From the IMG/VR virus record IMGVR_UViG_3300009509_000154, positions 1-31,580 of that record: 31,580 bases of DNA. One strand, written 5' to 3'. The DNA is from a virus. The position numbers were made by a program, and so were the translations under genes. The stretch's first letter is position 1. Each line of letters starts with the position of its first letter. Under the pieces are notes generated by a model. The model was not told the origin of the DNA, did no database searches, and worked only from the letters and a program-made list of their open reading frames with translations. This document shows positions 5,036-23,725 of this stretch, piece by piece.

Positions 5036-5437
5036 ATGGCTAATAATCCAAAAAAACAGTATCGGTACAAAGACTTGGATATGTCATTCAAGCCGCATCC
5101 GGTTACTGGTGACATTATCAGGAAGTTCGACGCGGAAGCAATCAAGCGTTCCGTGAAACTACTTGTGCTTACAGAATTCTATGGACGATTGTTTGACCCA
5201 GAGAAAGCTTCCGGCACACGAAGCCTGCTGTTCGAAAATATTACACCTGCCACCGCTGGGCTTATCGAACAGGCCATCTTCAATGCGATTCGCAACTATG
5301 AGCCAAGGGCAGACATATCCGAAGTTACCGTGGTGGCAAAACCGGATGACAATCAGTATGAAGCCACGATTATTTTCAACATCCTGAACATACCAGAGCC
5401 TATCGAGGTGAGTATGGTGCTGGAGAGAACCAGATGA
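5036..5437 (+). CDS. 25: gp25-like baseplate wedge subunit
   Basis: A 133-residue protein of the gp25/GPW family (T4 gp25 has 132 aa), the wedge subunit that nucleates sheath polymerisation. Visible features are KDLDMSFKPHPVTGDI at the N-terminus, then AIKRSVKLLVLTEFYGRLFDP with SLLFENIT, the core of the family, and a final VEVSMVLERTR strand. I chose the ATG at 5036, since upstream codons overlap the PAAR gene. Its stop overlaps the start of the next gene by 4 bases (ATGA). Confidence 0.92.
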   Translation: MANNPKKQYRYKDLDMSFKPHPVTGDIIRKFDAEAIKRSVKLLVLTEFYGRLFDPEKASGTRSLLFENITPATAGLIEQAIFNAIRNYEPRADISEVTVVAKPDDNQYEATIIFNILNIPEPIEVSMVLERTR

Positions 5438-5853
5438 AAACATTCAATCAGTTCAATACGGAATTATCGGATACAGTTTTCCGCCAGCAATTGGCAGAAA
5501 TCCATGTACCTGAGAATCCGGAACAATTATTGGACGAAGCCATGTTGGCCGATGCATTGGAAGCATTGAAAAAACTGTTTGATATGTTTATTCAGAAAAG
5601 AGACAGGAAGTTGTTGGTCAAAATCAAGTCCGCTATTTCTATATTGTCGGTGCAAGGTGCCGCAAAGGTAGCACGCCAATTACCAGCACCAAAATACAAA
5701 CAATTGGTGAGAGCATTGGAGCGCATGGCCGACGATGTACGCAAGGACGATACATTGAAAAATTTCGCCACTTTGGTTGGTGCCGATGTGAGTGTGAAGA
5801 CCGCTCCAACTTTTAAGTACCGTCATTTCGGACAGGACACAAGAAACCTATGA
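5434..5853 (+). CDS. putative internal/injected virion protein with capsid-targeting-like N-terminus
   Basis: A 139-residue, mostly helical protein. It opens with MKTFNQFNTEL, like the T4 capsid targeting sequence MKTYQEFIAEA that sends internal proteins IPI-IPIII into the head core. A possible LxE cleavage site (LAE) is at residues 20-22. The rest has helices rich in Leu, Lys and Ala (residues 40-115) and no recognised domain. Start and stop both overlap the neighbours in a tight late operon. The internal-protein role is inferred from the N-terminus and context. Confidence 0.6.
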   Translation: MKTFNQFNTELSDTVFRQQLAEIHVPENPEQLLDEAMLADALEALKKLFDMFIQKRDRKLLVKIKSAISILSVQGAAKVARQLPAPKYKQLVRALERMADDVRKDDTLKNFATLVGADVSVKTAPTFKYRHFGQDTRNL

Positions 5854-6614
5854 AGACTTTTAAGGAATTCAAACGGTTGCTAATCGAAAAGCGTTCCCAT
5901 GCAGAACAGAATCCGCGCGCGCGCACAGCCGAGACATTATTGAAATACAAAACCAAGAAACATGTCTATGTGTCTTTTTCGCCAATCAACAAGCTTGGTG
6001 TGAATCCAAAATCCAACTGGTCTACTCCACAGGGGGTATATGCTTATCCTATTGGAAAATTTGCAGACGATATCCGCGAGTATCTGTCGAGTGGGATGGG
6101 GGCAATCAATGTATTTCCATATGCGGGTGACCGGCCACATGTGTTTGTGGTTAAAACCAACCCGTCCGCAAAAGTCATGGATTTGAAAACGGGGAAATTT
6201 TCAGAAAAAGAGTTTTTGAAAAAATCAAAACAACTATCGGCGTTTCTTGTAGCCAACAACTACACAGAAGATGATGACGACGCCATGGAGTATTTCTATA
6301 CGGCATCCGTTGATTATGACTATACCCACAAAGCACTTTACAAGGCACTCCATGTTGCTATTGTGCGTAATGCAGCTAATGCCAGTGCAACAACCAGCAT
6401 TCATTTCAATAAGGCATTGCGTATTGCCGGATTTGATGCGGTGGAAGACCGTGGAACAAACACAATATTCAACGGAGAGCCATGGCAGATTGTGTATCTG
6501 ACACCAAAAGCATACACCATTGAAGAGTCCATATACAACGACGAAACGCCGCGTATGTGGAGAGACCGCGGGGGGCACATTCGTCGTGGTGAAGACAGGT
6601 CAAAATACCAATAA
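5850..6614 (+). CDS. putative injected virion protein: CTS-like N-terminus plus SFSP...TPQGVYAYP domain
   Basis: A 254-residue protein. The N-terminus MKTFKEFKRLLIE fits the capsid-targeting pattern with a possible cut after LIE (11-13). The body holds YVSFSPINKLGVNPKSNWS (from residue 35) followed by TPQGVYAYPI and, near residue 90, PYAGDRPHVFVVK. I recall this block (SxxxKLGxNPxSxxxTPxGxYxYP) from large multi-domain proteins of other phages, without an assigned reaction. A second block, GFDAVEDRG...NGEPWQIVYL (about residues 195-217), resembles endings of ART-like or polyvalent-protein domains. A toxin-like or modifying enzyme delivered with the DNA is plausible but not shown. Confidence 0.6.
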   Translation: MKTFKEFKRLLIEKRSHAEQNPRARTAETLLKYKTKKHVYVSFSPINKLGVNPKSNWSTPQGVYAYPIGKFADDIREYLSSGMGAINVFPYAGDRPHVFVVKTNPSAKVMDLKTGKFSEKEFLKKSKQLSAFLVANNYTEDDDDAMEYFYTASVDYDYTHKALYKALHVAIVRNAANASATTSIHFNKALRIAGFDAVEDRGTNTIFNGEPWQIVYLTPKAYTIEESIYNDETPRMWRDRGGHIRRGEDRSKYQ

Positions 6615-6642: not shown

Positions 6643-7014
6643 ATGCAATTCAAAGAACAACAACCAAAAACCAGAGTGTTGGATATCGTCAACGGTGCGT
6701 TATCCAAGAAAACGGTCACCGAAGCAAAAGAACTGACCATGCAACAACAGGCCATATTGGGTAAGGCAATCAAGAGTATTGAGAAAAAAACCAGTCGCAA
6801 TGACCACACAGGCGCATTGCAGGAATTGGCAGACTTGGTTGGTGCCAAACAGATTTCTGCTGTCATGACCCACATTGCGGCTATCCAGAAAATGCTTGGT
6901 TACGCACCAAAGGATTTGCAAAAATTCCGTGACAGCTATCTTGAAGTATTACTGAAGTATGTGAAAGAACAATACGACGAAGATGCAGTGAAAGAAGTTC
7001 GCGGCGCATTCTAA
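6643..7014 (+). CDS. small helical protein in the internal-protein cluster
   Basis: A 123-residue protein with AAGGAAC before its ATG. The start MQFKEQQPKTRVLD is only distantly like the MKTFxxF motif of its neighbours. Residues 30-110 are predicted by eye as helices; the segment DHTGALQELADLVGAKQIS loosely recalls the 5434-5853 protein (NFATLVGADVS), so the two may be related. No known domain. Context suggests a virion or core protein. Confidence 0.55.
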   Translation: MQFKEQQPKTRVLDIVNGALSKKTVTEAKELTMQQQAILGKAIKSIEKKTSRNDHTGALQELADLVGAKQISAVMTHIAAIQKMLGYAPKDLQKFRDSYLEVLLKYVKEQYDEDAVKEVRGAF

Positions 7015-7032
7015 TAACAACTAGGAACCATC

Positions 7033-8889
7033 ATGAGCAAGCTACTGAAAGACATTTCTTCACTGTTGACCGAGCTATCGGAAAAATACGAAATTCCAGA
7101 GTACACCAGACTGGAAGAAGGTACACTGGGCATTAACTATAAAGACATCGAAGACCCAGAACTGCGCAAACAGGCGTTCAATTCCATTTCCAATAACATT
7201 GGCAAGCGCGTACAAAATCTTCCAGGCAAGCGCAAAGTGGCTTTCTATAATCCAGAAACCAATGATTTGGTTTTCCCAGACCATCCAGAAGATATGGCGG
7301 GTTATATGGAAGATGGATACAAGCTGGTTATCGGGTTGAAGTTTCCTGCTTCATTGCGCGAAGCTATGCAGAAAGCCGAAATCATTGATAAGACAGGTAA
7401 CCGTGGCCATGTGAATTCTTCACTGGAATATACCATTACCGGAATCCAGCCAAGTCAAGTATTGCAATTTATGAAAAATCACAATCTGGTACCGCAAGTA
7501 AACGGTATGCTGATTGACTTTATGGGCTATAAAGGCGGTCCATTGGTAATGACCTATGACGAAGACAAGAAGACTCTCTATAGTGCGGCTGAGTTGGTTG
7601 ACCTGAAAAAGAACCTGAGACTGACTATTGGTGGTGAGAAACTGCGAGTGGAAGAAGTCGAGCTTAACGAAGGGTTGGTTGATAGTTTCAAAAAAGACTA
7701 CAAAGAATATCGCGACGATAAATTGTTTTCGGTCAAACAAAAAGGAGCCGGAAAGATTCTGGTCACCGACCTAAAAACCAAAAAAACAAAGTTGTTTAGG
7801 CTGTTAAGCAGAGACATGTTTGGTAGATACTGGGATTTGGTTGAAGAACTATCTACCGGCACTACCGAGTCTCTTGAAGAGGCATTGAATTCTCGTGTTG
7901 AAATTGTGGACAATACCGATAAGCTTGGCTCACTTGACTTTAACGAGTATCAGATTGGTGTAATTGTATTTGGCAACTCACCTATTTCTCGTGCGCTGAT
8001 TATTGACAAAGGCCATGCCAATGACGCCAAGGAATACGGCAGCAAGGTAATTGCTCGTGTGGCTAATCCACTGACCAAGATGTCTGGCGGCCATGCAAAC
8101 AATGCAACCATTATCAAACTGAACCTGAAAACCGGAACCTATGCACTACCGGACGAGGCTTCTATGTCTGGTGAAACCGATGAGTTCAAATGGGCTACAC
8201 CGGTTAAGTTCAAGCGCGTTGTTATCCAGCAACCGCAAAAAGCCGTTAAGCTGGGCTGGCTGAACAAGAGCCTTGAACCTATTGCGGAAGAAACTCTTGT
8301 AACGGAAGCTGCTGGTTCGGGTGACGACCGTTGGGTAATTGTTAGCATGGAAGGCGACAAGTCGTTTTTTAACAAAAACTCAAAGGTAATCAAAATCGTA
8401 AAAGCCTCCAACAATCCACCAGATACTTCCAAGTACCTGAGCAGTGGCCGTAAGGTGAAAGCGATTCGTCTTGGTGCGTTCAAGAAAGAGCTTATGGATT
8501 ACAAGCAAGACACCAAGAATCACCTGATGTCTCAGTTGGATAAAATTGTCAACGAAGACTTTTCGTTCAGGTTCGATTATTACAACGAAACAGGCATTGA
8601 AATTTGTGAAGAAAAAACCCTGACCAAGAAAGCTGCGGCAGACAAACTCCAAGAGCTTTCCGACAAGTATCAGTCATTCTCATATAAAGCAAGTGGCGTA
8701 CCCGATGGTGGCTCACGCGCGGGCAAAACTGATACCTTGTCCAGAATGTTATTCCGCCATGTGACTGGCGTAACCGTTGTCAAGAATCCACACAAAGAAG
8801 GTGAAGTCGTCAAGGTAACCGTTGACGAAAACAATCCTACGCGTATTGGCGGAAAAGAAACAACACAATTCTATATGTGGTTCTATTGA
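7033..8889 (+). CDS. large multi-segment virion protein with repeated LxE|A/G sites
   Basis: A 618-residue protein I do not recognise. TAGGAACC precedes the ATG. The helical N-terminus (SKLLKDISSLLTELSEKYE) differs from the MKTFxxF type. Matches or near matches to the T4 prohead protease rule (L/I-x-E before A or G) occur at LEE|G 27-30, LRE|A 108-111, LNE|G 211-214, LEE|A 281-284 and VTE|A 423-426; several fall between compact segments, as if the chain could be cut into domains. The segment from 295 to 400 has GVIVFGNSPISRALIIDKG and repeated beta patterns. It lies between small internal-protein candidates and gp6. Possible roles are a processed injected polyprotein or a structural protein. 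Confidence 0.6.
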   Translation: MSKLLKDISSLLTELSEKYEIPEYTRLEEGTLGINYKDIEDPELRKQAFNSISNNIGKRVQNLPGKRKVAFYNPETNDLVFPDHPEDMAGYMEDGYKLVIGLKFPASLREAMQKAEIIDKTGNRGHVNSSLEYTITGIQPSQVLQFMKNHNLVPQVNGMLIDFMGYKGGPLVMTYDEDKKTLYSAAELVDLKKNLRLTIGGEKLRVEEVELNEGLVDSFKKDYKEYRDDKLFSVKQKGAGKILVTDLKTKKTKLFRLLSRDMFGRYWDLVEELSTGTTESLEEALNSRVEIVDNTDKLGSLDFNEYQIGVIVFGNSPISRALIIDKGHANDAKEYGSKVIARVANPLTKMSGGHANNATIIKLNLKTGTYALPDEASMSGETDEFKWATPVKFKRVVIQQPQKAVKLGWLNKSLEPIAEETLVTEAAGSGDDRWVIVSMEGDKSFFNKNSKVIKIVKASNNPPDTSKYLSSGRKVKAIRLGAFKKELMDYKQDTKNHLMSQLDKIVNEDFSFRFDYYNETGIEICEEKTLTKKAAADKLQELSDKYQSFSYKASGVPDGGSRAGKTDTLSRMLFRHVTGVTVVKNPHKEGEVVKVTVDENNPTRIGGKETTQFYMWFY

Positions 8890-8905
8890 TTAATAAGGAT
8901 TTTCC

Positions 8906-9472
8906 ATGGATGCACTGAAGACGGAACAGTTGTTTGTTCGGGAATTTACAAAATTTCTCATGGAAGCAACGGAAGACAAGCCTGACTTTACTGGCAAGTA
9001 TTTTGATTATTGGATGGACAAGACCACCGAAGCCAACGGCCCAGTTGCCGATGGTGAAGTACAAAATGCCATATTGGTATCTGCCGAAGGTGAGTATTCT
9101 TCAGGAACCGCAGGAACCGTATTAATGGTTCGACTGGATGAGCCGCCGAAGACCGTGTATCGCGTAGGCTCAATGGACTATAAAGACCAATCCAGTGCCG
9201 TTCGTGCTGTTATTGACAAACACGAAGAATCAACAGAACAACGAATGAAAGACGATACCAAGGCCATTGAATCCGATACCTATGTCGCATACAATGCAAA
9301 AACATTCAAGATTGTATCGGCCATGGCAAAGGGCAAACCAATAACAGAACTGGAAGGCAAACTACAATCAGACGCCAGTAAACAGAAAGACGAAATTATG
9401 AAAAAATATTCGTTGTCTGATTTACCAATTGTTCCGGTACTGAATAAATCACCGATATACAGGGCAGCATAA
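8906..9472 (+). CDS. putative internal virion protein with FxxFLMEA N-terminus
   Basis: A 188-residue protein with AAGGATTTT before its ATG. The N-terminal helix EQLFVREFTKFLMEATED contains FxxFLxEA, very like the T4 capsid targeting ending FIAEA, with a cut expected after LME. The middle (EGEYSSGTAGTVLMVRLDEPP) is a short beta region and the rest is charged and helical. No known domain. The stop overlaps the ATG of gp6. Confidence 0.6.
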   Translation: MDALKTEQLFVREFTKFLMEATEDKPDFTGKYFDYWMDKTTEANGPVADGEVQNAILVSAEGEYSSGTAGTVLMVRLDEPPKTVYRVGSMDYKDQSSAVRAVIDKHEESTEQRMKDDTKAIESDTYVAYNAKTFKIVSAMAKGKPITELEGKLQSDASKQKDEIMKKYSLSDLPIVPVLNKSPIYRAA

Positions 9473-11286
9473 TGGCCAACTCCAAGCTGAGAGTCACAGA
9501 ACTTGATTTTAACAATATCAAGGAAAACCTGAAGAACTACCTGAGAGACCGTCCAGAGTTTACGGACTATGACTTTGAAGGCGCGGCATTAACCGTCCTG
9601 TTGGATGTATTGGCATACAATACTCACTACAATGCGTACTACCTGAATGTGGTGGGCAATGAGGCTTTCTTGGATTCGGCTCAGTTGAGAGAATCGGTAA
9701 TATCACGCGCAAAGGAAATCGGATATACGCCTCGTTCATGGATTGCGGCCACTGCGTTGTTGGACATAAAAGCCGTACCAAAGAAACCATTGAATCCACC
9801 ATATGACACATTGTCATTTGTGGTACTGGACAAGAACAAACCATTCACTACGGTAATAGACGGAAACACCTATACCTTTGTTACCCAAGCCAGTCATGTT
9901 TTGACAAAAAACTTGGACGGTGACTTTGTTGGTACCAATATTCCGGTTAAACAAGGCAAGTATCTGGAATTCCGTTATGTAGTTGACAAGACCAATCCGG
10001 AACAGAAGTTCATTATCCCGAACGAACGATGCGATACCACCACACTGAGGGTGTTGGTACAGACATCCGCTACTGACACCACCACCGAAGCATTCTCGCC
10101 AGTGATTGACTTTAACGAGTTGACCCCAGACACCAACTGTTACTGGATACACGAAATTGCCAATGGTCTCTATGAAGTACAGTTTGGTGATGGTGTGTTG
10201 GGCAAAGCCTTGGCCGACGGCAATATTATCAAGCTGTCATATATGGTGACCGAAGGTGATGTGGCCAACAAAGCCAGTGAGTTCACCTATACATCGTCCA
10301 TCCAAGGATTGACCAATATCCAAGTGACTACCGTACAGGCCGCATATGGCGGGGCAGAAATTGAGTCTATTGATTCTATCAAGTTCACTGCTCCAAAGTA
10401 TTACCAAGCACAGAACCGTGCGGTAACTCCGGAAGACTATGAAGTTATCGTAAAAAGAGAGTTCCCGAATATTGATTCCGTTACTGTATGGGGCGGTGAA
10501 GATAACGACCCGCCTATTTACGGTAAAGTGTTTATTTCGGTAAAACCAGCCGATGGGTTTACTTTGACCCTTGGCCTGAAGCAATTGATTGCCGACGAAA
10601 TCCTGAGAGAATTCAATGTGGTTACTATTTTGCCTGAAGTAGTAGACCCAGAATATTTGTTTGTCATCATGGATACCGAAGTGCGCTTTGATTCCTTCCT
10701 GACCAACAAGACCGCAGAAGATATCAGGGCAGAAGTGGTAACAACCATTGACACCTATAACGAAGACCGTTTGGGCAAGTTCGATAAGAAGTTAAGATTT
10801 TCCCAGTTGGTGGCAGACATTGACGATACAGACCAGTCTATCCTGAACAACCAGACACACCTGTTTTTACAAAAAAGATTCATTCCGGCTATCAACTTGC
10901 CGTTTGATTACACACTGAGATTCCAAAACGAACTGGAACCGAACTCATTGGCTATGGATGGGTTTACCATTAACGATAGCATTGTTGCCGAAGCAGGAAC
11001 CACCTATTTCATGAAAGACAATGGTGGTGGCATAATGGTGATTTATCGCAACCAACCAATCAGTGGCATTAGCGTAGTGGGCAACATTGGAACCGTGGAC
11101 TATGTAACCGGCAAAGTGTTTATCAGCCAGTTCAAGCCAGCTACCATTACAGACAGTTTTGGTGAACTGAGAATGACCGCCACGCCATTGGAAGAAGACA
11201 TATCTGTATTGAGAAACACCATTGTTGAAATTGACATGGATGAATTGGTGGTAACCGTTGTTCCTGAATACAGAGCCGAAATCTGA
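9472..11286 (+). CDS. 6: gp6-like baseplate wedge subunit (J-like)
   Basis: A 604-residue homologue of T4 gp6 (660 aa), the wedge protein that forms the ring around the hub and bridges neighbouring wedges. The N-terminal block FNNIKENLKNYLRDRPEFTDYDFEGAALTVLLDVLAYNTHYNAYY matches T4 gp6 in order and spacing, and AFLDSAQLRESVISRAKEIGYTPRS matches the next conserved block. QFGDGVLGKALADGN (about 226-240) and NRAVTPEDYEVIVKREFPNI (about 306-325) are the Mu gp47/baseplate J features. The start overlaps the previous stop and its stop overlaps the next ATG. Confidence 0.93.
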   Translation: MANSKLRVTELDFNNIKENLKNYLRDRPEFTDYDFEGAALTVLLDVLAYNTHYNAYYLNVVGNEAFLDSAQLRESVISRAKEIGYTPRSWIAATALLDIKAVPKKPLNPPYDTLSFVVLDKNKPFTTVIDGNTYTFVTQASHVLTKNLDGDFVGTNIPVKQGKYLEFRYVVDKTNPEQKFIIPNERCDTTTLRVLVQTSATDTTTEAFSPVIDFNELTPDTNCYWIHEIANGLYEVQFGDGVLGKALADGNIIKLSYMVTEGDVANKASEFTYTSSIQGLTNIQVTTVQAAYGGAEIESIDSIKFTAPKYYQAQNRAVTPEDYEVIVKREFPNIDSVTVWGGEDNDPPIYGKVFISVKPADGFTLTLGLKQLIADEILREFNVVTILPEVVDPEYLFVIMDTEVRFDSFLTNKTAEDIRAEVVTTIDTYNEDRLGKFDKKLRFSQLVADIDDTDQSILNNQTHLFLQKRFIPAINLPFDYTLRFQNELEPNSLAMDGFTINDSIVAEAGTTYFMKDNGGGIMVIYRNQPISGISVVGNIGTVDYVTGKVFISQFKPATITDSFGELRMTATPLEEDISVLRNTIVEIDMDELVVTVVPEYRAEI

Positions 11287-12206
11287 TGAAGACCTTTAAG
11301 CAATTCAAATCAGAATTGTGTGAGGGTATTAGTGATGTCTTGTATCACAGCACATATGGTGAACGAGCGGCCAATATATTGAGAACCAACCGTTTTGTGT
11401 TGTCGGTTGCGGTTGATAGTGCATCCGAATTGTCTCTATCGAGCAATAGGAAAAAACTAAAATTCTTTTTCCTGTCTACTTCACGAAGCAAGACCGGCGC
11501 GTTCCAGCAATCCATGGAGTTTGCTTCCGAGGCAACGACATTTGTTCTTGACGGAAGAAAGCTGGCCAGTAACCTGTCCGGTAGTCCAATTGACTATTTC
11601 AAAGGAACGCGGGAAACCAAATCAGCCGAAGCAGAAGACAGGATTTATTCGGATAAACCGGAAATCAATAATGCGGCCAAATACATAAAAGAAATACACA
11701 TAAGAGCAAACACTGCTACAAAAAATAATAAAAATCTGGCAACCATAGCGCGCATTGCAAAAGAAAAGAACATCCCGTTGTACCTGTATACGGACGGCAA
11801 GGATTTTGTTGTCCAGAATAAATCAAAAGCCATAACCGACCATGACAAGATTGTGGCCACACTTGATAGCAAAGAGAAAGAGCCTCCTGTAGCCAGCTAT
11901 GAAGTGTGGACACTGGATATCATGATGGCTTATCTACTGTCTGCATCGGCAAACAAGAAAGAATTCATGTCCAAAGTGAACAAACTAAATAAAACACAAA
12001 AAGAAAACATGATAACCAGATTCAAGTACATAACTAAAAATCCAGAAAACTTTGTTTATATGCTTATCAACGGATTCCATAGCAATAAAGAATCCACAGA
12101 GAAAGGCCGCGAATATGTCAATGGATTGGTGCAATACATGGAAAAGAACAAATTGAAGAACATGGAAGAATTGTCTACCAATCTACTAAAAAAAATAAAG
12201 GGCTAA
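11286..12206 (+). CDS. ADP-ribosyltransferase-like injected protein, paralogue A
   Basis: A 306-residue protein opening with MKTFKQFKSELCEG: capsid-targeting motif plus a possible protease site LCE|G (11-14). The next 130 residues look like an ADP-ribosyltransferase fold: VLYHST with His21, NILRTNRFVLS (30-40), FFLSTSRS with Ser-Thr-Ser at 64-66, TFVLDGRKL and AEAEDRIYS with Glu115 and Glu117 in the ExE position, then AAKYIKEIHI. These match, in order, the H/R, STS and ExE motifs of the ART superfamily. The second half is helical and ends in GREYVNGLVQYMEKNKLKN, shared with paralogues B and C. T4 Alt, an injected ART, is the precedent. Target unknown. Confidence 0.65.
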   Translation: MKTFKQFKSELCEGISDVLYHSTYGERAANILRTNRFVLSVAVDSASELSLSSNRKKLKFFFLSTSRSKTGAFQQSMEFASEATTFVLDGRKLASNLSGSPIDYFKGTRETKSAEAEDRIYSDKPEINNAAKYIKEIHIRANTATKNNKNLATIARIAKEKNIPLYLYTDGKDFVVQNKSKAITDHDKIVATLDSKEKEPPVASYEVWTLDIMMAYLLSASANKKEFMSKVNKLNKTQKENMITRFKYITKNPENFVYMLINGFHSNKESTEKGREYVNGLVQYMEKNKLKNMEELSTNLLKKIKG

Positions 12207-12207
12207 C

Positions 12208-12546
12208 ATGAAAACATTCGGACAACTAAGAAAAGAACTGGCGGAAGCAAAACAGGAAACATTGACCAAACCAATATACCTGAACAGTAGCAGCAACAGC
12301 AATCGTGGTTACGGTGTAGCCATTGGTACTCGTTCAAGCAGCAATGACTACAGTTCTGAATTGGTAGTGGTTACTAACGCCAAACTGGATGCGTCCAAGA
12401 AAAAGATTGTTTCCGGTATCGTGTCTGGCGTATATGACACAATGGGCGATAACTACGCTTACAGCAATGCGTCCAAGAGAGCAGACATGCTTGCGAGAGA
12501 CGCACAAAAGGCCGGTGTACCCCACGATTATGCAACCACAAAATAA
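12208..12546 (+). CDS. small putative injected protein with MKTFGQLRKELAEA N-terminus
   Basis: A 112-residue protein starting one base after paralogue A. MKTFGQLRKELAEA is the best match in the window to the T4 targeting-plus-cleavage pattern (cut expected after LAE, before A). The mature part would be about 99 residues, Ser/Asn-rich, with a short beta stretch YGVAIGTRSSSNDYSSELVVVTN and a C-terminal helix. No domain recognised. The 3' end overlaps paralogue B by 17 bases. Confidence 0.62.
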   Translation: MKTFGQLRKELAEAKQETLTKPIYLNSSSNSNRGYGVAIGTRSSSNDYSSELVVVTNAKLDASKKKIVSGIVSGVYDTMGDNYAYSNASKRADMLARDAQKAGVPHDYATTK

Positions 12547-13537
12547 TCAAAAAACATTCAAGCAGTTCAGGCAACAACTGTTCGAGGGTATCAGCCCTGT
12601 TCTGTACCACACCACATATGCCGCCAATGCAGCAAACATCTTGGACAAAGATAAGTTTGTTTTGTCTGTTGCAGTAAATCACCCGCGCGAAGAAGAAATA
12701 GCCAATTCTGGAAAAAGAGTGCGGCTGTTCTACCTGTCTACTTCAAGAAGCAAACTTGGCTCATATCAAGACACTGGTGGTGTGACTGGTGTTACCTTTG
12801 TATTGGATGGCAAGAAAATATCAAACAATTTTTCAGGAAAATCCATTGATTACTTTTCCGGTTCTGGCTCCGGTTCGGGCAACATATTTGACGGTGAACT
12901 GGAAGACCGGATTGTTTCGGATAAACCAGAAATAACACACGCCAGTAAGTACATCACCGAAGTTCATTTGCTTCTTGGTGAAAACTTGGTGCATAGTAGC
13001 GGAAGCGTATTGCCTGGGGTTAAACCAGACTTGTTTATTTTATTGAAAAACTTGGCCAAAAAAAGAAATATTCCGTTTTACATGTACACCAATCGCAAAC
13101 ATTTTTTGTTGCAAAACAAAAAAGAAGCGTATACCGGCATTGACATTGACCGATATTTCAACAATAAACCAGAGAAAACGACTTTCGATACATTGTTTGC
13201 GCCAGACAAGTTTTCGTTGATTTCACAATATGCCTTGGCGGTTTACCTGATGGTCAAGTCAAAAGACCGGAAAGAGCTTACCAAAAATATCAACAAGCTT
13301 GGCTCGGATGACAAAGATTCCGTAAAAAGAATGGTGTTCCCAAAAACAGGACATTCGAGCAAAACACGAGAGCGTATATCATCCATCATGAATGTGGCCA
13401 TACAGAATAATTCTGGTGCTAGGGATATTGGTCGTGAATATGTCAATGAGATTGTCCGCTATATGGAGAGAAACAAGTTCAGGTCTGCTACAGATTTGGT
13501 AGACCACTTGATACTGAAACACGGATTGTCCAAATGA
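12530..13537 (+). CDS. ADP-ribosyltransferase-like injected protein, paralogue B
   Basis: A 335-residue paralogue of the flanking ART-like proteins. I chose the ATG at 12530, inside the end of the previous gene, because an in-frame start further upstream would add 47 residues read out of frame from that gene. This gives MQPQNNQKTFKQFRQQLFEG, where the targeting motif is preceded by six extra residues; a start closer to KTF is not available. Motifs: VLYHTT with His27, YLSTSRS with Ser-Thr-Ser at 70-72, and ELEDRIVS with Glu123 and Glu125. A Gly-Ser-rich insert (GSGSGSG, about 111-117) lies just before the ExE motif. The C-terminus ends in GREYVNEIVRYMERNKFRS. Confidence 0.65.
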   Translation: MQPQNNQKTFKQFRQQLFEGISPVLYHTTYAANAANILDKDKFVLSVAVNHPREEEIANSGKRVRLFYLSTSRSKLGSYQDTGGVTGVTFVLDGKKISNNFSGKSIDYFSGSGSGSGNIFDGELEDRIVSDKPEITHASKYITEVHLLLGENLVHSSGSVLPGVKPDLFILLKNLAKKRNIPFYMYTNRKHFLLQNKKEAYTGIDIDRYFNNKPEKTTFDTLFAPDKFSLISQYALAVYLMVKSKDRKELTKNINKLGSDDKDSVKRMVFPKTGHSSKTRERISSIMNVAIQNNSGARDIGREYVNEIVRYMERNKFRSATDLVDHLILKHGLSK

Positions 13538-14535
13538 AGACTTTTAAGCGGTTCAAAACAGAATTGTATGAATCAGTAAGCGTAACGGTTTACCATGTTA
13601 CCAACATGTATCCGGCTATTAATATTCTTGAAAAAAACAAGTTTATATTGTCGGTTGCGACTGGTGTGGGTCGTGAAGAAACCTTGGTTCCAAAAACAAA
13701 AAAAACAAAACTGTTTTATTTGTCCACTTCAAGAAGCAAGACCGGCGCATTCCAGAGAGACTACAATATTTCAGGTTCGACTACATTTGTATTGGATGGT
13801 CGCAAGCTGGCTAATAACTATGCTTCCACTCCGGTAGAGTATTTTGGTAAAGACCGACCAGTATCGGAGCGTGAATCGGAAGACAGGATTTATTCGGATA
13901 AACCGGAAATCAATAACGCGGCCAAATACATAACAGAAATCCATATTGTGGTTGGTTCGTCTTTTGTGATGAACATCATGGGAAACCCAGCAAAATCAAA
14001 AGAAGATTTGTCTGCTTACTCGCGCATGTTGTCATTGGCTATCAAGCACAATATTCCAATTTATTTTTATGAAAAATTTAATGATTACTTGGTGCAAAAC
14101 AAAAAGAAAGCCATTGACATAAATAAAATAAAAGCAGGTATAGAAAAACTATCCCAGTCTGGCAATACTTTCGATATAGACAGTATTATTTCCAAGCGCA
14201 AAAACAGAGGCACATGGACAGACGATTTGGCGTTGTTACATGCCATGGTGTTTAGTGACAATCAACCAGACATGTTCAAGAAATTGGACAAGTTCGATAA
14301 TAAGGATTTTTTGAAAAAAGGATTTTTTGAATTCAAGAATACAAGAAGACCTGCCTTTAATGGTCATAAAGACTTTTACAATTTTGTGGTTGATACCATT
14401 CGCTCAAACATAAACTACGCGGAAGAAGGTCGCGAACAACTTAACCAAATAATCCGGTACATGGAAAAAAACAAAATACGCAGTGTTGGTGATTTGCATG
14501 GTTTGTTGTATAGCAGATACGGGATGGCATCATGA
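13534..14535 (+). CDS. ADP-ribosyltransferase-like injected protein, paralogue C
   Basis: A 333-residue third paralogue, overlapping B by 4 bases. The N-terminus is MKTFKRFKTELYES, with a possible cut after LYE. Motifs: VYHVT with His21, FYLSTSRS with Ser-Thr-Ser at 64-66, TTFVLDGRKL, RESEDRIYS with Glu114 and Glu116, and AAKYITEIHI. Identity to paralogue A is highest between FYLSTSRSKTGAFQ and KYITEIHI, while the later helical part diverges. Keeping all three motif sets in three copies argues that each is functional. The reaction is inferred from fold motifs only. Confidence 0.65.
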   Translation: MKTFKRFKTELYESVSVTVYHVTNMYPAINILEKNKFILSVATGVGREETLVPKTKKTKLFYLSTSRSKTGAFQRDYNISGSTTFVLDGRKLANNYASTPVEYFGKDRPVSERESEDRIYSDKPEINNAAKYITEIHIVVGSSFVMNIMGNPAKSKEDLSAYSRMLSLAIKHNIPIYFYEKFNDYLVQNKKKAIDINKIKAGIEKLSQSGNTFDIDSIISKRKNRGTWTDDLALLHAMVFSDNQPDMFKKLDKFDNKDFLKKGFFEFKNTRRPAFNGHKDFYNFVVDTIRSNINYAEEGREQLNQIIRYMEKNKIRSVGDLHGLLYSRYGMAS

Positions 14536-14987
14536 GGTTCAAACAGCTTGGTATTACCGAACAGGCGGTTTCCGCCAAGAATACAACAACCAAAGAATTC
14601 CAGACGGCCAAAAAATTTATTTTGGATTTTGTTGAAAAATATGGTTTCCGTAACACCATTATGGGCGGATATAACTTTGTGTTTTCGCCCACCAATGACT
14701 GGGACGAATCCATGGTAATGGCCGAACTAATGCCAATGAGCGACGGCACCGCATACATCACTGGATTGCTTGTGCCGGTAGATAGCCACAGGGGCAAGGG
14801 CTATGCCAAGAATGTCATGGAATCGCTGATAAAGGAGGCCAAGAAGGCTGGAATTGTCCTGACACTAGACCCAAAACCATTTGGCGCGGTCAAGGGGCTG
14901 AAGAAGGCGGATTTGGTAGCGTGGTATTCGAAGCTTGGATTCAAGAGAGAGGCCAGCCGTGGCCTTATGGTTAAGTATCCAAAATAA
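14532..14987 (+). CDS. GNAT-like acetyltransferase with CTS-like start
   Basis: A 151-residue protein, coupled by ATGA to paralogue C. Residues 72-110 have the GNAT core: ITGLLVPVDSHRGKGYAKNVM, with RGKGYA as the acetyl-CoA loop (motif A, R/Q-x-x-G-x-G/A), and a following helix. The end AWYSKLGFKREASRGLMVKY is the usual motif B ending. The N-terminus MRFKQLGITEQA resembles a shortened targeting peptide with ITE|Q as possible cut. It is the last gene of the late operon and converges on a minus-strand gene with only two bases between stops. The substrate is unknown. Confidence 0.65.
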   Translation: MRFKQLGITEQAVSAKNTTTKEFQTAKKFILDFVEKYGFRNTIMGGYNFVFSPTNDWDESMVMAELMPMSDGTAYITGLLVPVDSHRGKGYAKNVMESLIKEAKKAGIVLTLDPKPFGAVKGLKKADLVAWYSKLGFKREASRGLMVKYPK

Positions 14988-14989: not shown

Positions 14990-15208
14990 TTACTTTTTTT
15001 GTGTGAAATGAACTGGGATAAAATCGGATTCAAGAATCCAGTATTGGTGTAAAACATCGAAATGCTGAGTATTGTTGTCGTGTGTTAAACACCTACAGCG
15101 AAACGGAACTGGACTTTTGTCATTAACTTCGACAACAATTCTTTCATATGGGCGGAAAAACCCATATCCAGTATATAATCCGATATCACCTTTTTTAATA
15201 TTATTCAT
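14990..15208 (-). CDS. small hypothetical protein
   Basis: A 72-residue protein, last gene of the leftward cluster. The start MNNIKKGDIGLYTGYGFFRPYERIVVEVND suggests a small beta barrel with SH3-like character. The ribosome-binding site is poor; the gene overlaps the end of the upstream gene by 8 bases, so coupled translation is likely. Confidence 0.5.
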   Translation of the reverse strand: MNNIKKGDIGLYTGYGFFRPYERIVVEVNDKSPVPFRCRCLTHDNNTQHFDVLHQYWILESDFIPVHFTQKK

Positions 15209-15401
15209 CTTGGTCTACTATGTGGATTTTTGAAAGACATTCCAATGGGCACAGCCATGAGCCATCTTCGATTGCAAAAAATCGGTCTCCATTGACAAGT
15301 GTATGTTCTGGGGCAATGGAAGCATCCAAATTACGGTCGTAATCTGGGCGACATCCTCTTACGAAAATATAGTGCGCCTTTTTAACTGATACTTTGTGCA
15401 T
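15201..15401 (-). CDS. small hypothetical protein
   Basis: A 66-residue protein with AAGGATT before its ATG. MHKVSVKKAHYIFVRGCRPDYDRN is followed by FFAIEDGSWLCPLECLSKI. No domain recognised. Confidence 0.5.
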   Translation of the reverse strand: MHKVSVKKAHYIFVRGCRPDYDRNLDASIAPEHTLVNGDRFFAIEDGSWLCPLECLSKIHIVDQDE

Positions 15402-15416
15402 GTCGATTGCAATCCT

Positions 15417-15668
15417 TTATTTGTTGGAATAACAAAAAATCATGTCTTCTATTGCAGAATGCAATTTTTCATCGCCAACATATTCTTGCATGAAATCTAG
15501 GCAACTGCATTGCCCTCTACTTCTTCTTAGACTTTTTAAAGAAGAAGTATAACAGATTGCTTCGCTTTCACTGAACCCTCTTTCCATAAGCCCACAAAAC
15601 AAGTCTTCTGGAAAGAATCGTCTTTCAAAACTAAGTATCTGTTCCAGTGTAAATGTATGGGATTTCAT
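15417..15668 (-). CDS. small hypothetical protein, Cys-containing
   Basis: An 83-residue protein, helical by eye, with scattered Cys residues (GQCSCLDF near residue 53) but no clean zinc pattern. The start overlaps the stop of the upstream gene by 4 bases (ATGA). Confidence 0.5.
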   Translation of the reverse strand: MKSHTFTLEQILSFERRFFPEDLFCGLMERGFSESEAICYTSSLKSLRRSRGQCSCLDFMQEYVGDEKLHSAIEDMIFCYSNK

Positions 15669-15934
15669 TTGCGAAGAGGCGCGGTATTGATTGTTGCTTC
15701 AACGCGAAGTGCTTCATCGGAAGGCACTTCAACAAAAAGTTCAGACAGCGCTTTTACACTGTTGAATACCACCAAGTCATCATCACTGACAATGGGCGAA
15801 TGCCCGCAACATGGACATGACTTGTTATGCCATTCTGGAATCTGGTCAAACTCAATATCTTTGTTCCAGTCACAACCGGAATTATCACATTGAACGGTTG
15901 TTTTCTTGCTTTGGATTTCTACTAGCTTGGTCAT
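15665..15934 (-). CDS. small zinc-ribbon protein
   Basis: An 89-residue protein. I chose the ATG at 15934, which has GGAG upstream, rather than longer versions that run into the next gene. TVQCDNSGCDWNKDIEFD and SCPCCGHSP (Cys16, Cys21, Cys40, Cys43) form a likely zinc ribbon of the type that reads single-stranded DNA or packs small domains. The C-terminal half is a short acidic alpha/beta part. Confidence 0.55.
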   Translation of the reverse strand: MTKLVEIQSKKTTVQCDNSGCDWNKDIEFDQIPEWHNKSCPCCGHSPIVSDDDLVVFNSVKALSELFVEVPSDEALRVEATINTAPLRK

Positions 15935-15941
15935 AATACAG

Positions 15942-16160
15942 TTACTCCACTTTGTGAATAAGACAAGTACATTTTTTGTCGACATACCAATCGGTTGGAC
16001 TGACATTTGTTGGTGGCGACACCTCGGTCATGGCAATGCGATATTCAATGTCATCGTCAATTTCAATCAACACACCTCGGTCGCTTGGGCTGTATATATT
16101 AAATTTGCGCTCAAAGTCCGTGATGGGAAACGCGGTAATAAAATATTGGTCATTTATCAC
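15942..16160 (-). CDS. small hypothetical protein
   Basis: A 72-residue protein with a GTG start at 16160 that overlaps the previous gene by 11 bases. Mostly beta by eye (YFITAFPITDFERKFNIYSP, VLIEIDDDIEYRIAMTEV), ending in VDKKCTCLIHKVE. No recognised family. Confidence 0.5.
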   Translation of the reverse strand: MINDQYFITAFPITDFERKFNIYSPSDRGVLIEIDDDIEYRIAMTEVSPPTNVSPTDWYVDKKCTCLIHKVE

Positions 16161-16488
16161 GATTGGCCAATTCTCGTATCATGTCGATTTGTTCTTGGGT
16201 AAACGGACCATCATCCGGTTCATATTTGGGCGTATAATTTTCAATTTCGTCAAAAAAATCACGCACGGACTGTTCAAATGGAGCGTTGATTTCCCGCAAG
16301 GCTTCTGCTAACTGCAACAATGCCCCCCAGTTCCATCCACCACTACGGCTTTGGTCTGGCCAATACATCCAGCTTCCGTCTTCGTGGCATATGATATCAC
16401 CCAGATACACGCCATTGTAATAGTACACATCGTACTTTTCGGGCAACCCTTCTTTGTTGAGTTGCGGTTCGATTCTCAGTAATTTCAT
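16150..16488 (-). CDS. hypothetical protein with Trp-rich middle
   Basis: A 112-residue protein. The segment VYLGDIICHEDGSWMYWPDQSRSGGWNWGALLQLAEALREINAPFE has an order (G-xx-L-HEDG-W-YWP-xxxxGWxxG) I have seen in other small phage proteins of unknown role. The C-terminal 35 residues are acidic. The start overlaps the stop of the membrane protein upstream. Confidence 0.55.
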   Translation of the reverse strand: MKLLRIEPQLNKEGLPEKYDVYYYNGVYLGDIICHEDGSWMYWPDQSRSGGWNWGALLQLAEALREINAPFEQSVRDFFDEIENYTPKYEPDDGPFTQEQIDMIRELANRDK

Positions 16489-16838
16489 TTTTTCACCGCC
16501 AACTTGTCAGCATATTCCAATAGCCAGATATCCGGCGAATCCGCAACATAGTACCAATCAAACGAAAATGCACCAACGCCAATGCCAATCATCAAGCATA
16601 ATGACGATAGACATAGTCTCATGGTGGCCAACTCGCCGTCGTTTGAGCAAAAGTATTCAAACCGACAATAAAAAATATAGGCGAAGAGAATCACGAAAAA
16701 ACAAAAAAGAAAAAAATTTCCAACGAAAGTCGTGGTCATTAGTTGGTTCAACAATTCTGGATATTGCTCAACCGGAACCGCGCCATCACCAACAGTGTTC
16801 CGGATTAGGTTCAGAACAATTTCGTCGCGTGTTGTCAT
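16485..16838 (-). CDS. small membrane protein, two TM segments
   Basis: A 117-residue protein with GAGGTG before its ATG. Two hydrophobic segments, about residues 37-57 (FVGNFFLFCFFVILFAYIF) and 76-93 (CLSSLCLMIGIGVGAFSF), are separated by a short acidic loop. No family recognised. A role at the inner membrane (superinfection exclusion or host takeover) would fit, but nothing specific shows it. Confidence 0.55.
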   Translation of the reverse strand: MTTRDEIVLNLIRNTVGDGAVPVEQYPELLNQLMTTTFVGNFFLFCFFVILFAYIFYCRFEYFCSNDGELATMRLCLSSLCLMIGIGVGAFSFDWYYVADSPDIWLLEYADKLAVKK

Positions 16839-16842
16839 GGTA

Positions 16843-17124
16843 TCACCTCACAATAGAGTTATTGACAATTTTATCAAATAGTTCTGGAGACACAACATCA
16901 AAATTGCTGCAACCAAGTTCACGAAAATGTTTGCCGGTTGTTGGTCCCCAGTGGTTGTCCAACCTGACTTTGGCTATTTCTGGTTTCCCACCATGTTCTG
17001 GTGTGTGGTTGGCAATACCATGAAACGCGATGCAGGTTTCATATGAAAAGAAATAACGATTCGCTCCAATGGTTACTACATGTGCTTGGGTTTTTCGCCC
17101 AGTTGGGTTTGTAATATACGCCAT
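16843..17124 (-). CDS. conserved small phage protein (WGPTTGKH motif)
   Basis: A 93-residue protein with GGAG before its ATG. The order ANRYFFSYETCIAFHG, then RLDNHWGPTTGKHFRELGC, is one I recall from small uncharacterised proteins of many tailed phages (YFSYxTxIAF ... N.W..TTG.H...). No enzymatic motif. Confidence 0.65.
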   Translation of the reverse strand: MAYITNPTGRKTQAHVVTIGANRYFFSYETCIAFHGIANHTPEHGGKPEIAKVRLDNHWGPTTGKHFRELGCSNFDVVSPELFDKIVNNSIVR

Positions 17125-17139
17125 AATATAAACTCCGTG

Positions 17140-17415
17140 TTATTCTCGGTAGTTGTCCAGTTGGCCGAAATAATATTCGGCTACTGGTTTTGCCAGTTTG
17201 GTGCCAAAGGCAGCAATTTGGTGTTTGTCTCTGGTTTCATTGTTTCCGTTGGCCACTCCAATATACGCTTTTTGGTGTCCAGTCACAACATCTTCGCACA
17301 GAACCGCACAAATACATCCTGTCATGTTGGTGAACCAAACGGCTTGTTTGATTTCCAAACAGGTACCGGCAACCAGATTGCGGTTTGGGAACTTGGCGAT
17401 ATTGTCACTCATCAT
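17140..17415 (-). CDS. hypothetical protein
   Basis: A 91-residue protein. Tandem ATGs at 17415 and 17412 both overlap the previous stop; either could be used. CLEIKQAVWFTNMTGCICAVLCEDVVTGHQKAYIGVANG looks like a compact beta domain with four Cys. No family recognised. Confidence 0.5.
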   Translation of the reverse strand: MMSDNIAKFPNRNLVAGTCLEIKQAVWFTNMTGCICAVLCEDVVTGHQKAYIGVANGNNETRDKHQIAAFGTKLAKPVAEYYFGQLDNYRE

Positions 17416-17786
17416 ACATTTTCCGATTGGTTTCGGACTCTCTCGCAGGACAATTCTACCAGAGAATTGGTCTCGGAATCAATAATTTCCTTGAACCAGC
17501 GACCGGCTTCTTCCGGCGTTTTTTCGCCAGACACGATATACAACACCAAGTCCGACAGTCCGTTGACTTCCAGTCGGTCTACCAAGTCATCAAAACCAGC
17601 CCAGATATTACCAACGCCAGCCGGTGCTGAGTCGCCTTTCACAATGGCCGCGCGGATGTTTTCTTCAAACTTGTCGCACAGGATGTCAGCATCCGGTTTG
17701 TTCAGGGCAGGGTCATCGCTATACACTTCATCGCGACGCTCGTCAACTTCGTAGGTGTATCCGTTTCGGCGAAATTTGGAACTCAT
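17412..17786 (-). CDS. hypothetical acidic protein
   Basis: A 124-residue acidic protein with AGGAG well spaced before its ATG and its own promoter upstream (17818-17846). It starts with a short beta hairpin (KFRRNGYTYEVDERRDEVYSDD), followed by helices. No family recognised. It is the first gene of a leftward transcript. Confidence 0.55.
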   Translation of the reverse strand: MSSKFRRNGYTYEVDERRDEVYSDDPALNKPDADILCDKFEENIRAAIVKGDSAPAGVGNIWAGFDDLVDRLEVNGLSDLVLYIVSGEKTPEEAGRWFKEIIDSETNSLVELSCERVRNQSENV

Positions 17787-17817
17787 GTCAAACTCCTATC
17801 AATCAATTCACACTATC

Positions 17818-17846
17818 ATCATAAACACTTTTTTTTGAAAAAACAA
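17818..17846 (-). promoter_or_regulatory. sigma70-type promoter, leftward
   Basis: On the minus strand TTGTTT (17841-17846), 17 bases, and TATGAT (17818-17823), with an A8 tract inside the spacer. It lies in the gap of 66 bases before the 17412-17786 gene and has the right distance to its ribosome-binding site. Confidence 0.5.
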
Positions 17847-17852
17847 TAGTTT

Positions 17853-18209
17853 TTAAGGTTTTCTATACATAAAAACAATGTTTTTTAAGCCCCTTTCCCT
17901 AACAAGTTCGACCATGTGTTTGGTGCCTGTACTGGAGCCATCCCAGAAAGCAACCAGACAGTCGGCATTGTTGGCCATGGCCTCGTTCCTAAGCCGTCCA
18001 GCGGCCTTGCCATACGCTTCCCAGTTGGCTGGGTATTCGTCCACTGGTATGCCGTTTTCGTTCGCCCAACGCCTTCCTAATTCGTCTGCCCCGCGCGCAC
18101 AGCCACACACGACAGTTGACGGTTTCCATACTTCGGTTACGGTCTCCATGGCGCGCACCATAGTAGGGTAGTCATCAAAAGACCGGCTACCAGCAATAAT
18201 AATTCTCAT
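17853..18209 (-). CDS. DUF2493-type SLOG-fold protein
   Basis: A 118-residue protein of the YspA/cpYpsA-related SLOG family. It begins with MRIIIAGSRSFDDY (strand plus GSR loop), has VVCGCARGADELGRRWA (33-49, the GxxxGxD nucleotide loop), AGRLRNEAMANNADCLVAFWDGSSTGT (70-96) and a final strand NIVFMYRKP. These are all the usual marks. SLOG domains bind nucleotide-derived ligands such as NAD or ADP-ribose products. Phage copies are common but their role is unsettled; counter-defence against NAD-signal systems is one possibility and pure inference here. Confidence 0.85.
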   Translation of the reverse strand: MRIIIAGSRSFDDYPTMVRAMETVTEVWKPSTVVCGCARGADELGRRWANENGIPVDEYPANWEAYGKAAGRLRNEAMANNADCLVAFWDGSSTGTKHMVELVRERGLKNIVFMYRKP

Positions 18210-18220
18210 TTGGGAATTCC

Positions 18221-18922: not shown

Positions 18923-18925
18923 TTT

Positions 18926-19105
18926 CTATTCCTGTGTGTTACGCGCCTTGGTGCTATTCGTTAAAAATGTCCTGCAATCACAATTCTTGCACTTCCGTAT
19001 GCGTAGCCGTTGCAATGCCTCTGGCGACAACGATTCGTGCTTTTCCAATATCGGCATTTCATCCTTTGTCTGTACCGTGTGGCACCTGTAGCACTGGTAT
19101 ATCAC
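18926..19105 (-). CDS. small zinc-finger protein (59 aa)
   Basis: A GTG start at 19105 overlaps the upstream stop (GTGA). The product has CYRC at 5-8 and CKNCDC at 39-44, a probable zinc ribbon. Its last residues (STKARNTQE) and the DNA coding them match the end of another small gene at 20332-20490. It ends four bases before the transglycosylase start, and its 3' end contains that gene's ribosome-binding site. Confidence 0.6.
   Translation of the reverse strand: MIYQCYRCHTVQTKDEMPILEKHESLSPEALQRLRIRKCKNCDCRTFLTNSTKARNTQE
18927..18959. repeat. 33-base near-repeat, copy A
   Basis: This stretch matches 20333-20365 at 29 of 33 positions and codes, on the minus strand, the C-terminal residues ending in NTQE plus an AGGAATA that can act as a ribosome-binding site. 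Here it serves the transglycosylase gene. Confidence 0.6.
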
Positions 19106-19682: not shown

Positions 19683-19723
19683 GACTATGACTTCACTCCT
19701 TTCTTATCCACAATCAACCCTCC

Positions 19724-20008: not shown

Positions 20009-20011
20009 CAC

Positions 20012-20239: not shown

Positions 20240-20326
20240 GGCTTATTTCCTTTTTAGCGTTTCAGCAAAAGCCTTTGCATCGGCCTCGCTGCAAAATGGC
20301 TCGTAAGTAAATCTTCCATTGCGCGG
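20214..20326. repeat. 113-base direct repeat, copy 1
   Basis: This stretch is nearly identical to 20793-20904. On the minus strand both copies hold the end of one gene, a ribosome-binding site, and the first codons of the next gene (M..YTPEDV). The main difference is a one-base length change between the stop of the first gene and the next start. Confidence 0.75.
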
Positions 20327-20329: not shown

Positions 20330-20331
20330 TG

Positions 20332-23723: not shown

Positions 23724-23725
23724 CG

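What the first reader, a model, noticed from the sequence alone, without database searches (positions are those of the whole stretch)
11286..14535. Three tandem ADP-ribosyltransferase-like paralogues
The proteins at 11286-12206, 12530-13537 and 13534-14535 share YH(S/T/V)T, LSTSRS, FVLDG, E-x-EDRI and KYI-EIHI in the same order. This matches the H/R, STS and ExE motifs of ADP-ribosyltransferases. T4 has one injected ART (Alt). Three diverging copies, each with its own targeting tag and all motif residues kept, suggest that each modifies a different host target. The shared C-terminal helix (GRE(Y/Q)(V/L)N...YMEKNK) is unexplained.
Basis: partly seen in the sequence, partly recalled or inferred. 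Interest (0 to 1): 0.77.

Follow-up and report, generated by a model that had tools for sequence, protein, structure and literature searches.

The report
Three head-packaged phage ADP-ribosyltransferase paralogues
A T4-like virus of bacteria carries three related, unannotated enzymes that look built to be packed in the virus head, injected with the DNA, and used to attach ADP-ribose to host molecules; they belong to a widespread phage family that no database used here names.

Summary
P1 (11286-12206), P2 (12530-13537) and P3 (13534-14535) are intact paralogues, 42-44% identical to P1. Pfam, PHROGs, NCBIfam and PDB-sequence searches do not recognise them.

(1) AlphaFold2 (pLDDT 88, pTM 0.85) gives an ART fold over residues ~11-179. 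The top PDB matches are DarT and Tpt1/KptA (VIA Z ~10); pertussis- and cholera-type ARTs come lower. (2) In ~70 family rows (IMG/VR loci and GenBank phages, where they are 'hypothetical') the active-site positions hold: H21 69/70, S64 68/68, R67 68/70, E115 70/71 (one Q), E117 71/71.

The N-termini (MKTFK.FK.EL.E) match T4 internal-protein capsid-targeting sequences (IPI MKTFKEF, IPII/III MKTYQEF) and carry an LxE cleavage-type site. Three unrelated genes of the window share the tag. The genes lie in a tightly packed run downstream of baseplate gene 6. Best reading: a battery of late-made, head-packaged, injected ARTs.

Two corrections: the enzymes are H-S-ExE and DarT/KptA-like, not Alt-like (R-S-E); and 'a different target for each' is untested. 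The 'unexplained helix' belongs to a family-wide C-terminal helical domain without a detectable PDB relative.

The parts
11286..12206 (+). P1, 306 aa: capsid-targeting tag + ART core + C-terminal helical domain
   Evidence: ORF and alignment; AF2 pLDDT 87.7, pTM 0.85; ART fold matches
11286..11324 (+). P1 residues 1-13 MKTFKQFKSELCE: T4-type capsid-targeting sequence ending in an LxE prohead-protease-type site
   Evidence: T4 IPI MKTFKEF, IPII/III MKTYQEFIAEA; CTS described in PMC9026906
11346..11348 (+). P1 His21, ART motif I (YHxT)
   Evidence: H in 69 of 70 family rows, R in one
11475..11486 (+). P1 Ser64-Thr-Ser-Arg67, ART motif II
   Evidence: S64 68/68, R67 68/70
11628..11642 (+). P1 Glu115-x-Glu117-Asp-Arg119, ART motif III (ExE)
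   Evidence: E115 70/71 (one Q), E117 71/71, R119 65/71
11835..12203 (+).
   Evidence: AF2 alone pLDDT 87.0, pTM 0.77; no PDB match; alignment
12208..12546 (+). 112-aa protein with the same tag (MKTFGQLRKELAE), unrelated body, no family match
12530..13537 (+). P2, 335 aa ART paralogue; tag KTFKQFRQQLFE after six extra residues; 4-residue insertion in the loop before ExE
13534..14535 (+). P3, 333 aa ART paralogue; tag MKTFKRFKTELYE; ATGA overlap with P2 stop
14532..14987 (+). GNAT-type acetyltransferase, start overlaps P3 stop (ATGA); homologues lie near ARTs of this family in Lu11 and HRDY3 and are fused C-terminally to one in L033
   Evidence: Pfam PF00583 over its cut-off
9472..11286 (+). 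gp6 baseplate wedge subunit; its stop overlaps the P1 start; places the ART genes in a structural-gene operon
   Evidence: tblastn 37-41% to T4-like gp6, nearest Pelagibacter phages; sequence
5434..5853 (+). 139-aa protein with the same tag (MKTFNQFNTELSD)
5850..6614 (+). 254-aa protein with the same tag (MKTFKEFKRLLIE, first 7 residues identical to T4 IPI); homologues lie near ARTs in L037, L012 and L051

Best explanation
P1-P3 are NAD+-dependent ADP-ribosyltransferases of an unnamed phage family with an H-S-ExE active site and a DarT/KptA-like core. They are made late, with the baseplate genes. A T4-IP-type N-terminal peptide directs them into the prohead core, and the prohead protease probably removes it after the LxE at residue 13, just before the ART domain. 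They are injected with the genome and modify host macromolecules (protein or nucleic acid) at the start of infection. Shown by computation: paralogy, ART fold, conserved active-site residues, shared T4-like tag, operon position. Inferred: catalytic activity, packaging and cleavage, injection, host targets. Speculative: a different target for each copy.
For: AF2 model with pLDDT 88 and pTM 0.85. Foldseek's leading PDB hits are ART-superfamily chains (DarT, Tpt1/KptA, mosquitocidal toxin, pertussis toxin). VIA: Tpt1 Z 10.2 (113 residues, 2.6 A), DarT Z 10.0 and 9.2 (149 and 143 residues), then pertussis and cholera ARTs at Z 4.5-6. H21, S64, R67, E115 and E117 held in ~70 divergent rows, with one Q at the first E, a known ART variant. 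Tag matches T4 IPI/IPII/IPIII and is shared with the unrelated genes 5434, 5850 and 12208. In other phages, with other tag sequences, the ART's tag resembles that of non-ART ORFs of the same locus far more often than of other loci: 16/492 against 34/12300, Fisher p 3e-11, 8 of 26 loci, window included. Stop/start overlaps gp6-P1, P2-P3 and P3-GNAT. Fusions with injected-effector domains: L041 GNAT+ParB-like+ART+metalloprotease-like, L044 MPTase-PolyVal+ART, L033 ART+GNAT. Literature: head-packaged ARTs are common in myoviruses and the Alt family is associated with baseplate genes (PMC9503650, PMC5512222).
Against: No biochemistry or virion proteomics for any member was found. No model coordinates were available, so active-site geometry was not measured. 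Some relatives (Lu11, JA13, Vibrio K566) lie among replication, RNA-ligase or topoisomerase genes, and JA13 copies start directly at the ART domain without a tag, so packaging may not hold family-wide. P2's tag is not at the extreme N-terminus. The T4 late-promoter core TATAAATA is absent from the window (0.82 expected by chance). Foldseek E-values are weak (0.03-0.1); the fold claim rests on the consistency of the hits and on VIA Z.
Confidence: 0.77

Rival explanations
1. The enzymes are DarT-like nucleic-acid ARTs: injected to ADP-ribosylate DNA or RNA (host DNA, host mRNA/tRNA, or the phage's own DNA as protection) rather than proteins such as RNA polymerase.
For: DarT (DNA ART) and Tpt1/KptA (RNA enzyme) are the closest solved folds; DarT also carries Q/E-x-E (PMC11281641); profile alignment places YHxT on DarT 'YHITHxDNLPxIL' and KptA 'YHGT', scoring just above shuffled decoys. 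BFVD also lists a baculovirus and an iridovirus protein, and PMC9503650 calls the ORF28 family of those viruses DarT-related.
Against: Fold proximity does not set the substrate. Sequence similarity to DarT is marginal (E 0.03). PF14487 does not match the window. Neither flanking protein scanned matched a macro-domain antitoxin.
Confidence: 0.35
2. NAD+ glycohydrolases: ART-fold enzymes that destroy NAD+ or generate or counter an ADP-ribose-type signal, without a macromolecular acceptor.
For: The ART fold includes NADases (PMC9503650); the data do not separate transfer from hydrolysis.
Against: Three diverged copies with a variable pre-ExE loop and an extra C-terminal domain fit acceptor recognition better. 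PMC9503650 reports NADase-type ARTs to be significantly under-represented in viruses.
Confidence: 0.12
3. KptA/Tpt1-like RNA 2'-phosphotransferases used for RNA repair.
For: Highest single VIA Z is a Tpt1 (10.2); one relative lies next to an RNA ligase in Vibrio K566/D484.
Against: Only the C-terminal lobe of archaeal Tpt1 (residues ~85-187) aligns; P1 has 17 residues before the first strand, so no N-terminal lobe. The near-absolute ExE is not a Tpt1 feature (own knowledge). Packaging in the head would be odd for RNA repair.
Confidence: 0.05
4. Packaged but catalytically dead structural internal proteins that reuse an ART fold.
For: T4 IPs II and III are non-essential packaged proteins without a stated function (PMC9026906).
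Against: Six active-site positions are kept in all three copies although only 61 of 162 core columns are (hypergeometric 0.0024 for six), and they are kept across ~70 relatives.
Confidence: 0.05

Closest known systems
Bacteriophage T4 Alt (Alt/VIP2 ART family)
   Same: Head-packaged, injected ART of a T4-like phage; associated with baseplate genes; processed by the prohead protease (PMC9026906, PMC5512222).
   Different: Alt is R-S-E (here H-S-ExE), 682 aa, single packaged copy; profile comparison shows no similarity.
DarT1/DarT2 DNA ADP-ribosyltransferases (PF14487)
   Same: Closest fold together with Tpt1 (VIA Z 8.1-10.0); YHxT-type motif I; Q/E-x-E motif III.
   Different: No PF14487 match; no macro-domain antitoxin found beside the genes; capsid tag and C-terminal helical domain added; phage effector rather than host toxin-antitoxin.
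Tpt1/KptA RNA 2'-phosphotransferase (PF01885)
   Same: ART core fold (VIA Z up to 10.2) and a YHGT-like motif.
   Different: Lacks the N-terminal lobe; has ExE.
ART and GNAT domains of phage polyvalent proteins (Tox-ART-HYD2)
   Same: Injected multidomain context; some members here are fused to GNAT, ParB-like or MPTase-PolyVal domains.
   Different: Those ARTs are H-Y-D (PMC5512222); this family is H-S-ExE.
T4 internal proteins IPI/IPII/IPIII
   Same: N-terminal capsid-targeting sequence: IPI MKTFKEF is identical to the first 7 residues of gene 5850; P1/P3 MKTFK[QR]F.
   Different: T4 IPs have no ART domain.

Membership tests
ADP-ribosyltransferase superfamily | ART core fold | tested here: met
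   AF2; leading Foldseek hits are ART chains; VIA Z ~10 to Tpt1 and DarT over residues 8-176
ADP-ribosyltransferase superfamily | Conserved H/R - S/Y - Q/E-x-E active-site residues in order | tested here: met
   H21 69/70, S64 68/68, E115 70/71 (Q once), E117 71/71
ADP-ribosyltransferase superfamily | NAD+-dependent ADP-ribosyl transfer | not testable with these tools
   needs enzyme assay
T4 Alt/VIP2 and Mod (R-S-E clade) | Arg in motif I | tested here: not met
   His in all three copies and 69/70 rows
T4 Alt/VIP2 and Mod (R-S-E clade) | Sequence-profile similarity to T4 Alt or ModA/B | tested here: inconclusive
   hhalign finds none, but such profiles miss distant homology
DarT | PF14487 match | tested here: not met
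   No match in the window; the same search finds DarT in 10 of 200 bacterial genomes
DarT | DarT-like fold and Q/E-x-E | tested here: met
   VIA Z 8.1-10.0; E115-x-E117; DarT2 158-QxE-160
DarT | Adjacent macro-domain antitoxin (DarG) | tested here: not met
   Flanking genes 12208 and 14532 give no macro-domain hit; 14532 is GNAT
DarT | Substrate-contact residues (Arg51, His119 of DarT2) | not testable with these tools
   no coordinates for superposition
KptA/Tpt1 | N-terminal lobe before the ART lobe | tested here: not met
   First strand starts at residue 18; only archaeal Tpt1 residues ~85-187 align
T4-type head-targeted internal protein | N-terminal CTS resembling T4 IPs, shared with other proteins of the same phage | tested here: met
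T4-type head-targeted internal protein | (L/I)xE cleavage-type site after the tag | tested here: met
   LCE13 (P1), LYE13 (P3), LFE19 (P2) read from sequence; cleavage itself not shown
T4-type head-targeted internal protein | Presence in virions | not testable with these tools
   no virion proteomics found for a member phage
Polyvalent-protein ART (Tox-ART-HYD2) | H-Y-D active site | tested here: not met
   S64 and E117 instead of Y and D (PMC5512222)

The most novel reading that the evidence does not exclude
A previously unrecognised, apparently phage-restricted ART family (H-S-ExE, intermediate between the H-Y-[EDQ] and R-S-E clades) that many T4-like and jumbo phages inject, and that has expanded in tandem in separate lineages (window, Mel-JY01, probably Lu11, Slicko01 and JA13), so that one virion delivers several ARTs with different acceptors, possibly nucleic acids. 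That would be a multi-target ADP-ribosylation strike at the moment of infection.
Probability: 0.35. Interest if true: 0.75.

Novelty: new variant of a known kind. Interest (0 to 1): 0.54.

Why it matters
Members of this family in GenBank phages are annotated 'hypothetical protein', so an injected enzymatic effector of the T4 Alt type may have gone unnamed in phages of Vibrio, Dickeya, Pseudomonas, Rhizobium, Salicola and others. The conserved active site makes it testable at once with standard NAD+ assays in culturable phages. If the copies have different acceptors, they offer a natural series for mapping how ARTs choose targets; if the acceptor is nucleic acid, it would be a DarT-like chemistry used by the virus rather than against it. 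The shared-tag rule (an ART and unrelated neighbours carrying the same phage-specific N-terminus) also gives a way to list injected proteins from sequence alone.

Tried and rejected
Pfam, PHROGs and NCBIfam on all three copies, and Pfam/PHROGs on 34 relatives: no family, only scattered weak hits. PDB sequence search: nothing meaningful. blastn against phages: none. Family in bacterial genomes: one pattern scan of 84,980 genomes found no relative and the A4 profile found none in 398 genomes. The DarT search on the same phylum did find matches, but no positive control for this query was available, so 'phage-restricted' is provisional. hhalign to DarT, KptA, Alt and Mod: an early KptA E of 6e-4 with a thin alignment weakened to 0.16 with a deeper one, so I do not lean on it. 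T4 late-promoter consensus: absent. A single MKKF-tag pattern in Vibrio K566 found only the ART itself. C-terminal domain against PDB: best Foldseek E 2.6, best VIA Z 3.8, so no known fold detected, which does not prove a new fold. Alt-like function was considered and demoted on motif I and fold. The KptA repair role was rejected for lack of the N-lobe and presence of ExE.
Full report
What is there. The window is a 31.6-kb virus record (an IMG/VR fragment) of a T4-like myophage: the gene before P1 is gp6, the baseplate wedge subunit, 37-41% identical to gp6 of T4-like phages and closest to Pelagibacter phages Mosig and HTVC008M. Directly downstream on the same strand come P1 (11286-12206), a 112-aa gene (12208-12546), P2 (12530-13537), P3 (13534-14535) and a GNAT gene (14532-14987). 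The gp6/P1, P2/P3 and P3/GNAT junctions are stop-start overlaps, and the 112-aa gene overlaps P2 by 17 nt, so this looks like one translationally coupled unit. P1 is 42% identical to P2 and 44% to P3; 88 of 296 ungapped columns are invariant. No further copy exists in the fragment.

The family. Profile-guided scans gave 11 and then 42 IMG/VR loci (partly the same contigs), and tblastn found 38 phage records (Vibrio, Dickeya, Rhizobium, Pseudomonas, Alishewanella, Salicola, Microcystis, Salmonella, one uncultured). The matches are annotated 'hypothetical protein' apart from one record without annotation. Iterated searches of these loci give 71 matching ORFs. Positions held across them: H21 69/70 (one R), S64 68/68, R67 68/70, E115 70/71 (one Q), E117 71/71, R119 65/71. 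The middle and last residues of 'STS' are not conserved. H, S, both Arg and both Glu were also the invariant columns (besides Met1) of a 25-sequence alignment.

Fold. AlphaFold2 on P1 with 34 sequences gave pLDDT 87.7 and pTM 0.85. Foldseek's best PDB matches are ART chains: DarT 7yk3 (prob 0.99), Tpt1 7yw4 (0.99), a mosquitocidal ART toxin, DarT 7omw; E-values are only 0.03-0.1. VIA re-alignment gives Tpt1 Z 10.2 (113 residues, 2.6 A), DarT Z 10.0 and 9.2 (149 and 143 residues), then pertussis toxin, Rhs toxins and cholera/LT at Z 4.5-6. The aligned part is residues ~11-179. In BFVD the top hits are family members (a Dickeya JA11 protein among them); further down are phage G proteins and a baculovirus and an iridovirus protein. 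Profile-profile comparison puts YHxT on the same motif of DarT and KptA, with scores just above shuffled decoys, and finds nothing for Alt or Mod. So this is an ART nearer to DarT/KptA than to T4 Alt, with an H-S-ExE signature unlike Alt (R-S-E) and unlike polyvalent-protein ARTs (H-Y-D) as described in PMC5512222.

Packaging signal. T4 IPI begins MKTFKEF and IPII/IPIII begin MKTYQEFIAEA. P1 and P3 begin MKTFK[QR]FK.EL.E, P2 has KTFKQFRQQLFE after six residues, and genes 5434, 5850 and 12208, whose bodies are unrelated, carry the same tag. PMC9026906 reports that the first ten residues of IPIII suffice for incorporation, with residues 4 and 7 most important for targeting; residues 4 and 7 are both F in P1, P3 and genes 5434 and 5850. 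An LxE site follows, ending at residue 13 (19 in P2). In other phages the tag sequence is different, but ART and non-ART ORFs of the same locus share it more often than expected: 16/492 same-locus against 34/12300 other-locus comparisons, Fisher p 3e-11, 8 of 26 loci, the window being one of them with three of the 16. The strongest other examples are L037 (MLSYKEYL) and Alishewanella phage Slicko01 (MKID.LYES).

Context. A 5850-type protein lies near ARTs in L037 (two), L012 (two) and L051, and GNAT homologues lie near ARTs in Lu11 and HRDY3 and are fused C-terminally to an ART in L033. L041 combines GNAT, a ParB-like segment, ART and a metalloprotease-like segment; L044 joins MPTase-PolyVal to an ART. 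These are domains of polyvalent, virion-delivered proteins (PMC5512222). PMC9503650 finds ARTs enriched in myoviruses and often encoded with head genes. Some members do not fit: Lu11, JA13 and Vibrio K566 copies lie near topoisomerase, DNA-ligase or RNA-ligase genes, and JA13 copies have no tag.

Duplication. In the tree the three window copies form a clade (98/97), as do the two of Mel-JY01 (100/99); Lu11, Slicko01 and JA13 copies group with weaker support, while the two Sen-NF copies and the two L034 copies do not. So tandem expansion happened more than once. Six active-site positions stayed invariant in the window copies while only 61 of 162 core columns did (0.0024 for six). The nine residues before ExE (106-114) share no position among the copies, and P2 has a 4-residue insertion there. 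PMC11281641 describes the loop before Q/E-x-E (ARTT loop) as tied to substrate specificity in many ARTs, so the difference is compatible with different acceptors, but loops diverge in general and this is no test.

C-terminal part. Residues 184-306 fold on their own as a six-helix domain (pLDDT 87, pTM 0.77) with no PDB match. Most long family members have the domain, with a near-invariant Asn in a LxxDhHN motif (the window copies keep the Asn but only P1 keeps the His). The short Vibrio members lack it, so it is an accessory domain, plausibly for acceptor or inhibitor binding (inference).

Verdict. ART fold and active site: well supported (about 0.93). Active transferase: likely (0.75). Packaged and injected in this phage: likely (0.8). 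Different target per copy: open (0.4). Class: a new variant of a known kind, the head-packaged phage ART.

Noticed in passing
window 5850-6614: Capsid-tagged 254-aa protein of an unnamed family (..DPDVYISFT..DKLGINPKS.YNTPLGIY.YPL..); homologues lie near ARTs in L037 (two copies, sharing that phage's own tag), L012 (two) and L051. No Pfam or PHROGs family. Candidate second injected effector.
   Followed up: partly
window 14532-14987: GNAT acetyltransferase overlapping the P3 stop; GNAT homologues recur near ARTs in Lu11 and HRDY3 and fused to an ART in L033, suggesting ART and acetyltransferase are delivered together.
   Followed up: partly
window 12208-12546 and 5434-5853: Two further proteins with the MKTF tag and bodies without any family match: likely additional internal head proteins.
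   Followed up: partly
L042:3407-4825: One 473-aa protein holds two ART domains of this family in tandem (residues 32-185 and 198-416).
   Followed up: no
L041:3227-5443; L044:3176-4870: Polyvalent-type fusions: GNAT + ParB-like + ART + metalloprotease-like; MPTase-PolyVal + ART.
   Followed up: partly
window 6643-9472: Three genes between the tagged cluster and gp6 (123, 618 and 188 aa) with no convincing Pfam or PHROGs match.
   Followed up: no
window 14990-24903: Strand switch after the ART operon: a long run of small minus-strand ORFs with reversed GC skew.
   Followed up: no
whole window: No exact match to the T4 late-promoter core TATAAATA on either strand (0.82 expected by chance).
   Followed up: no
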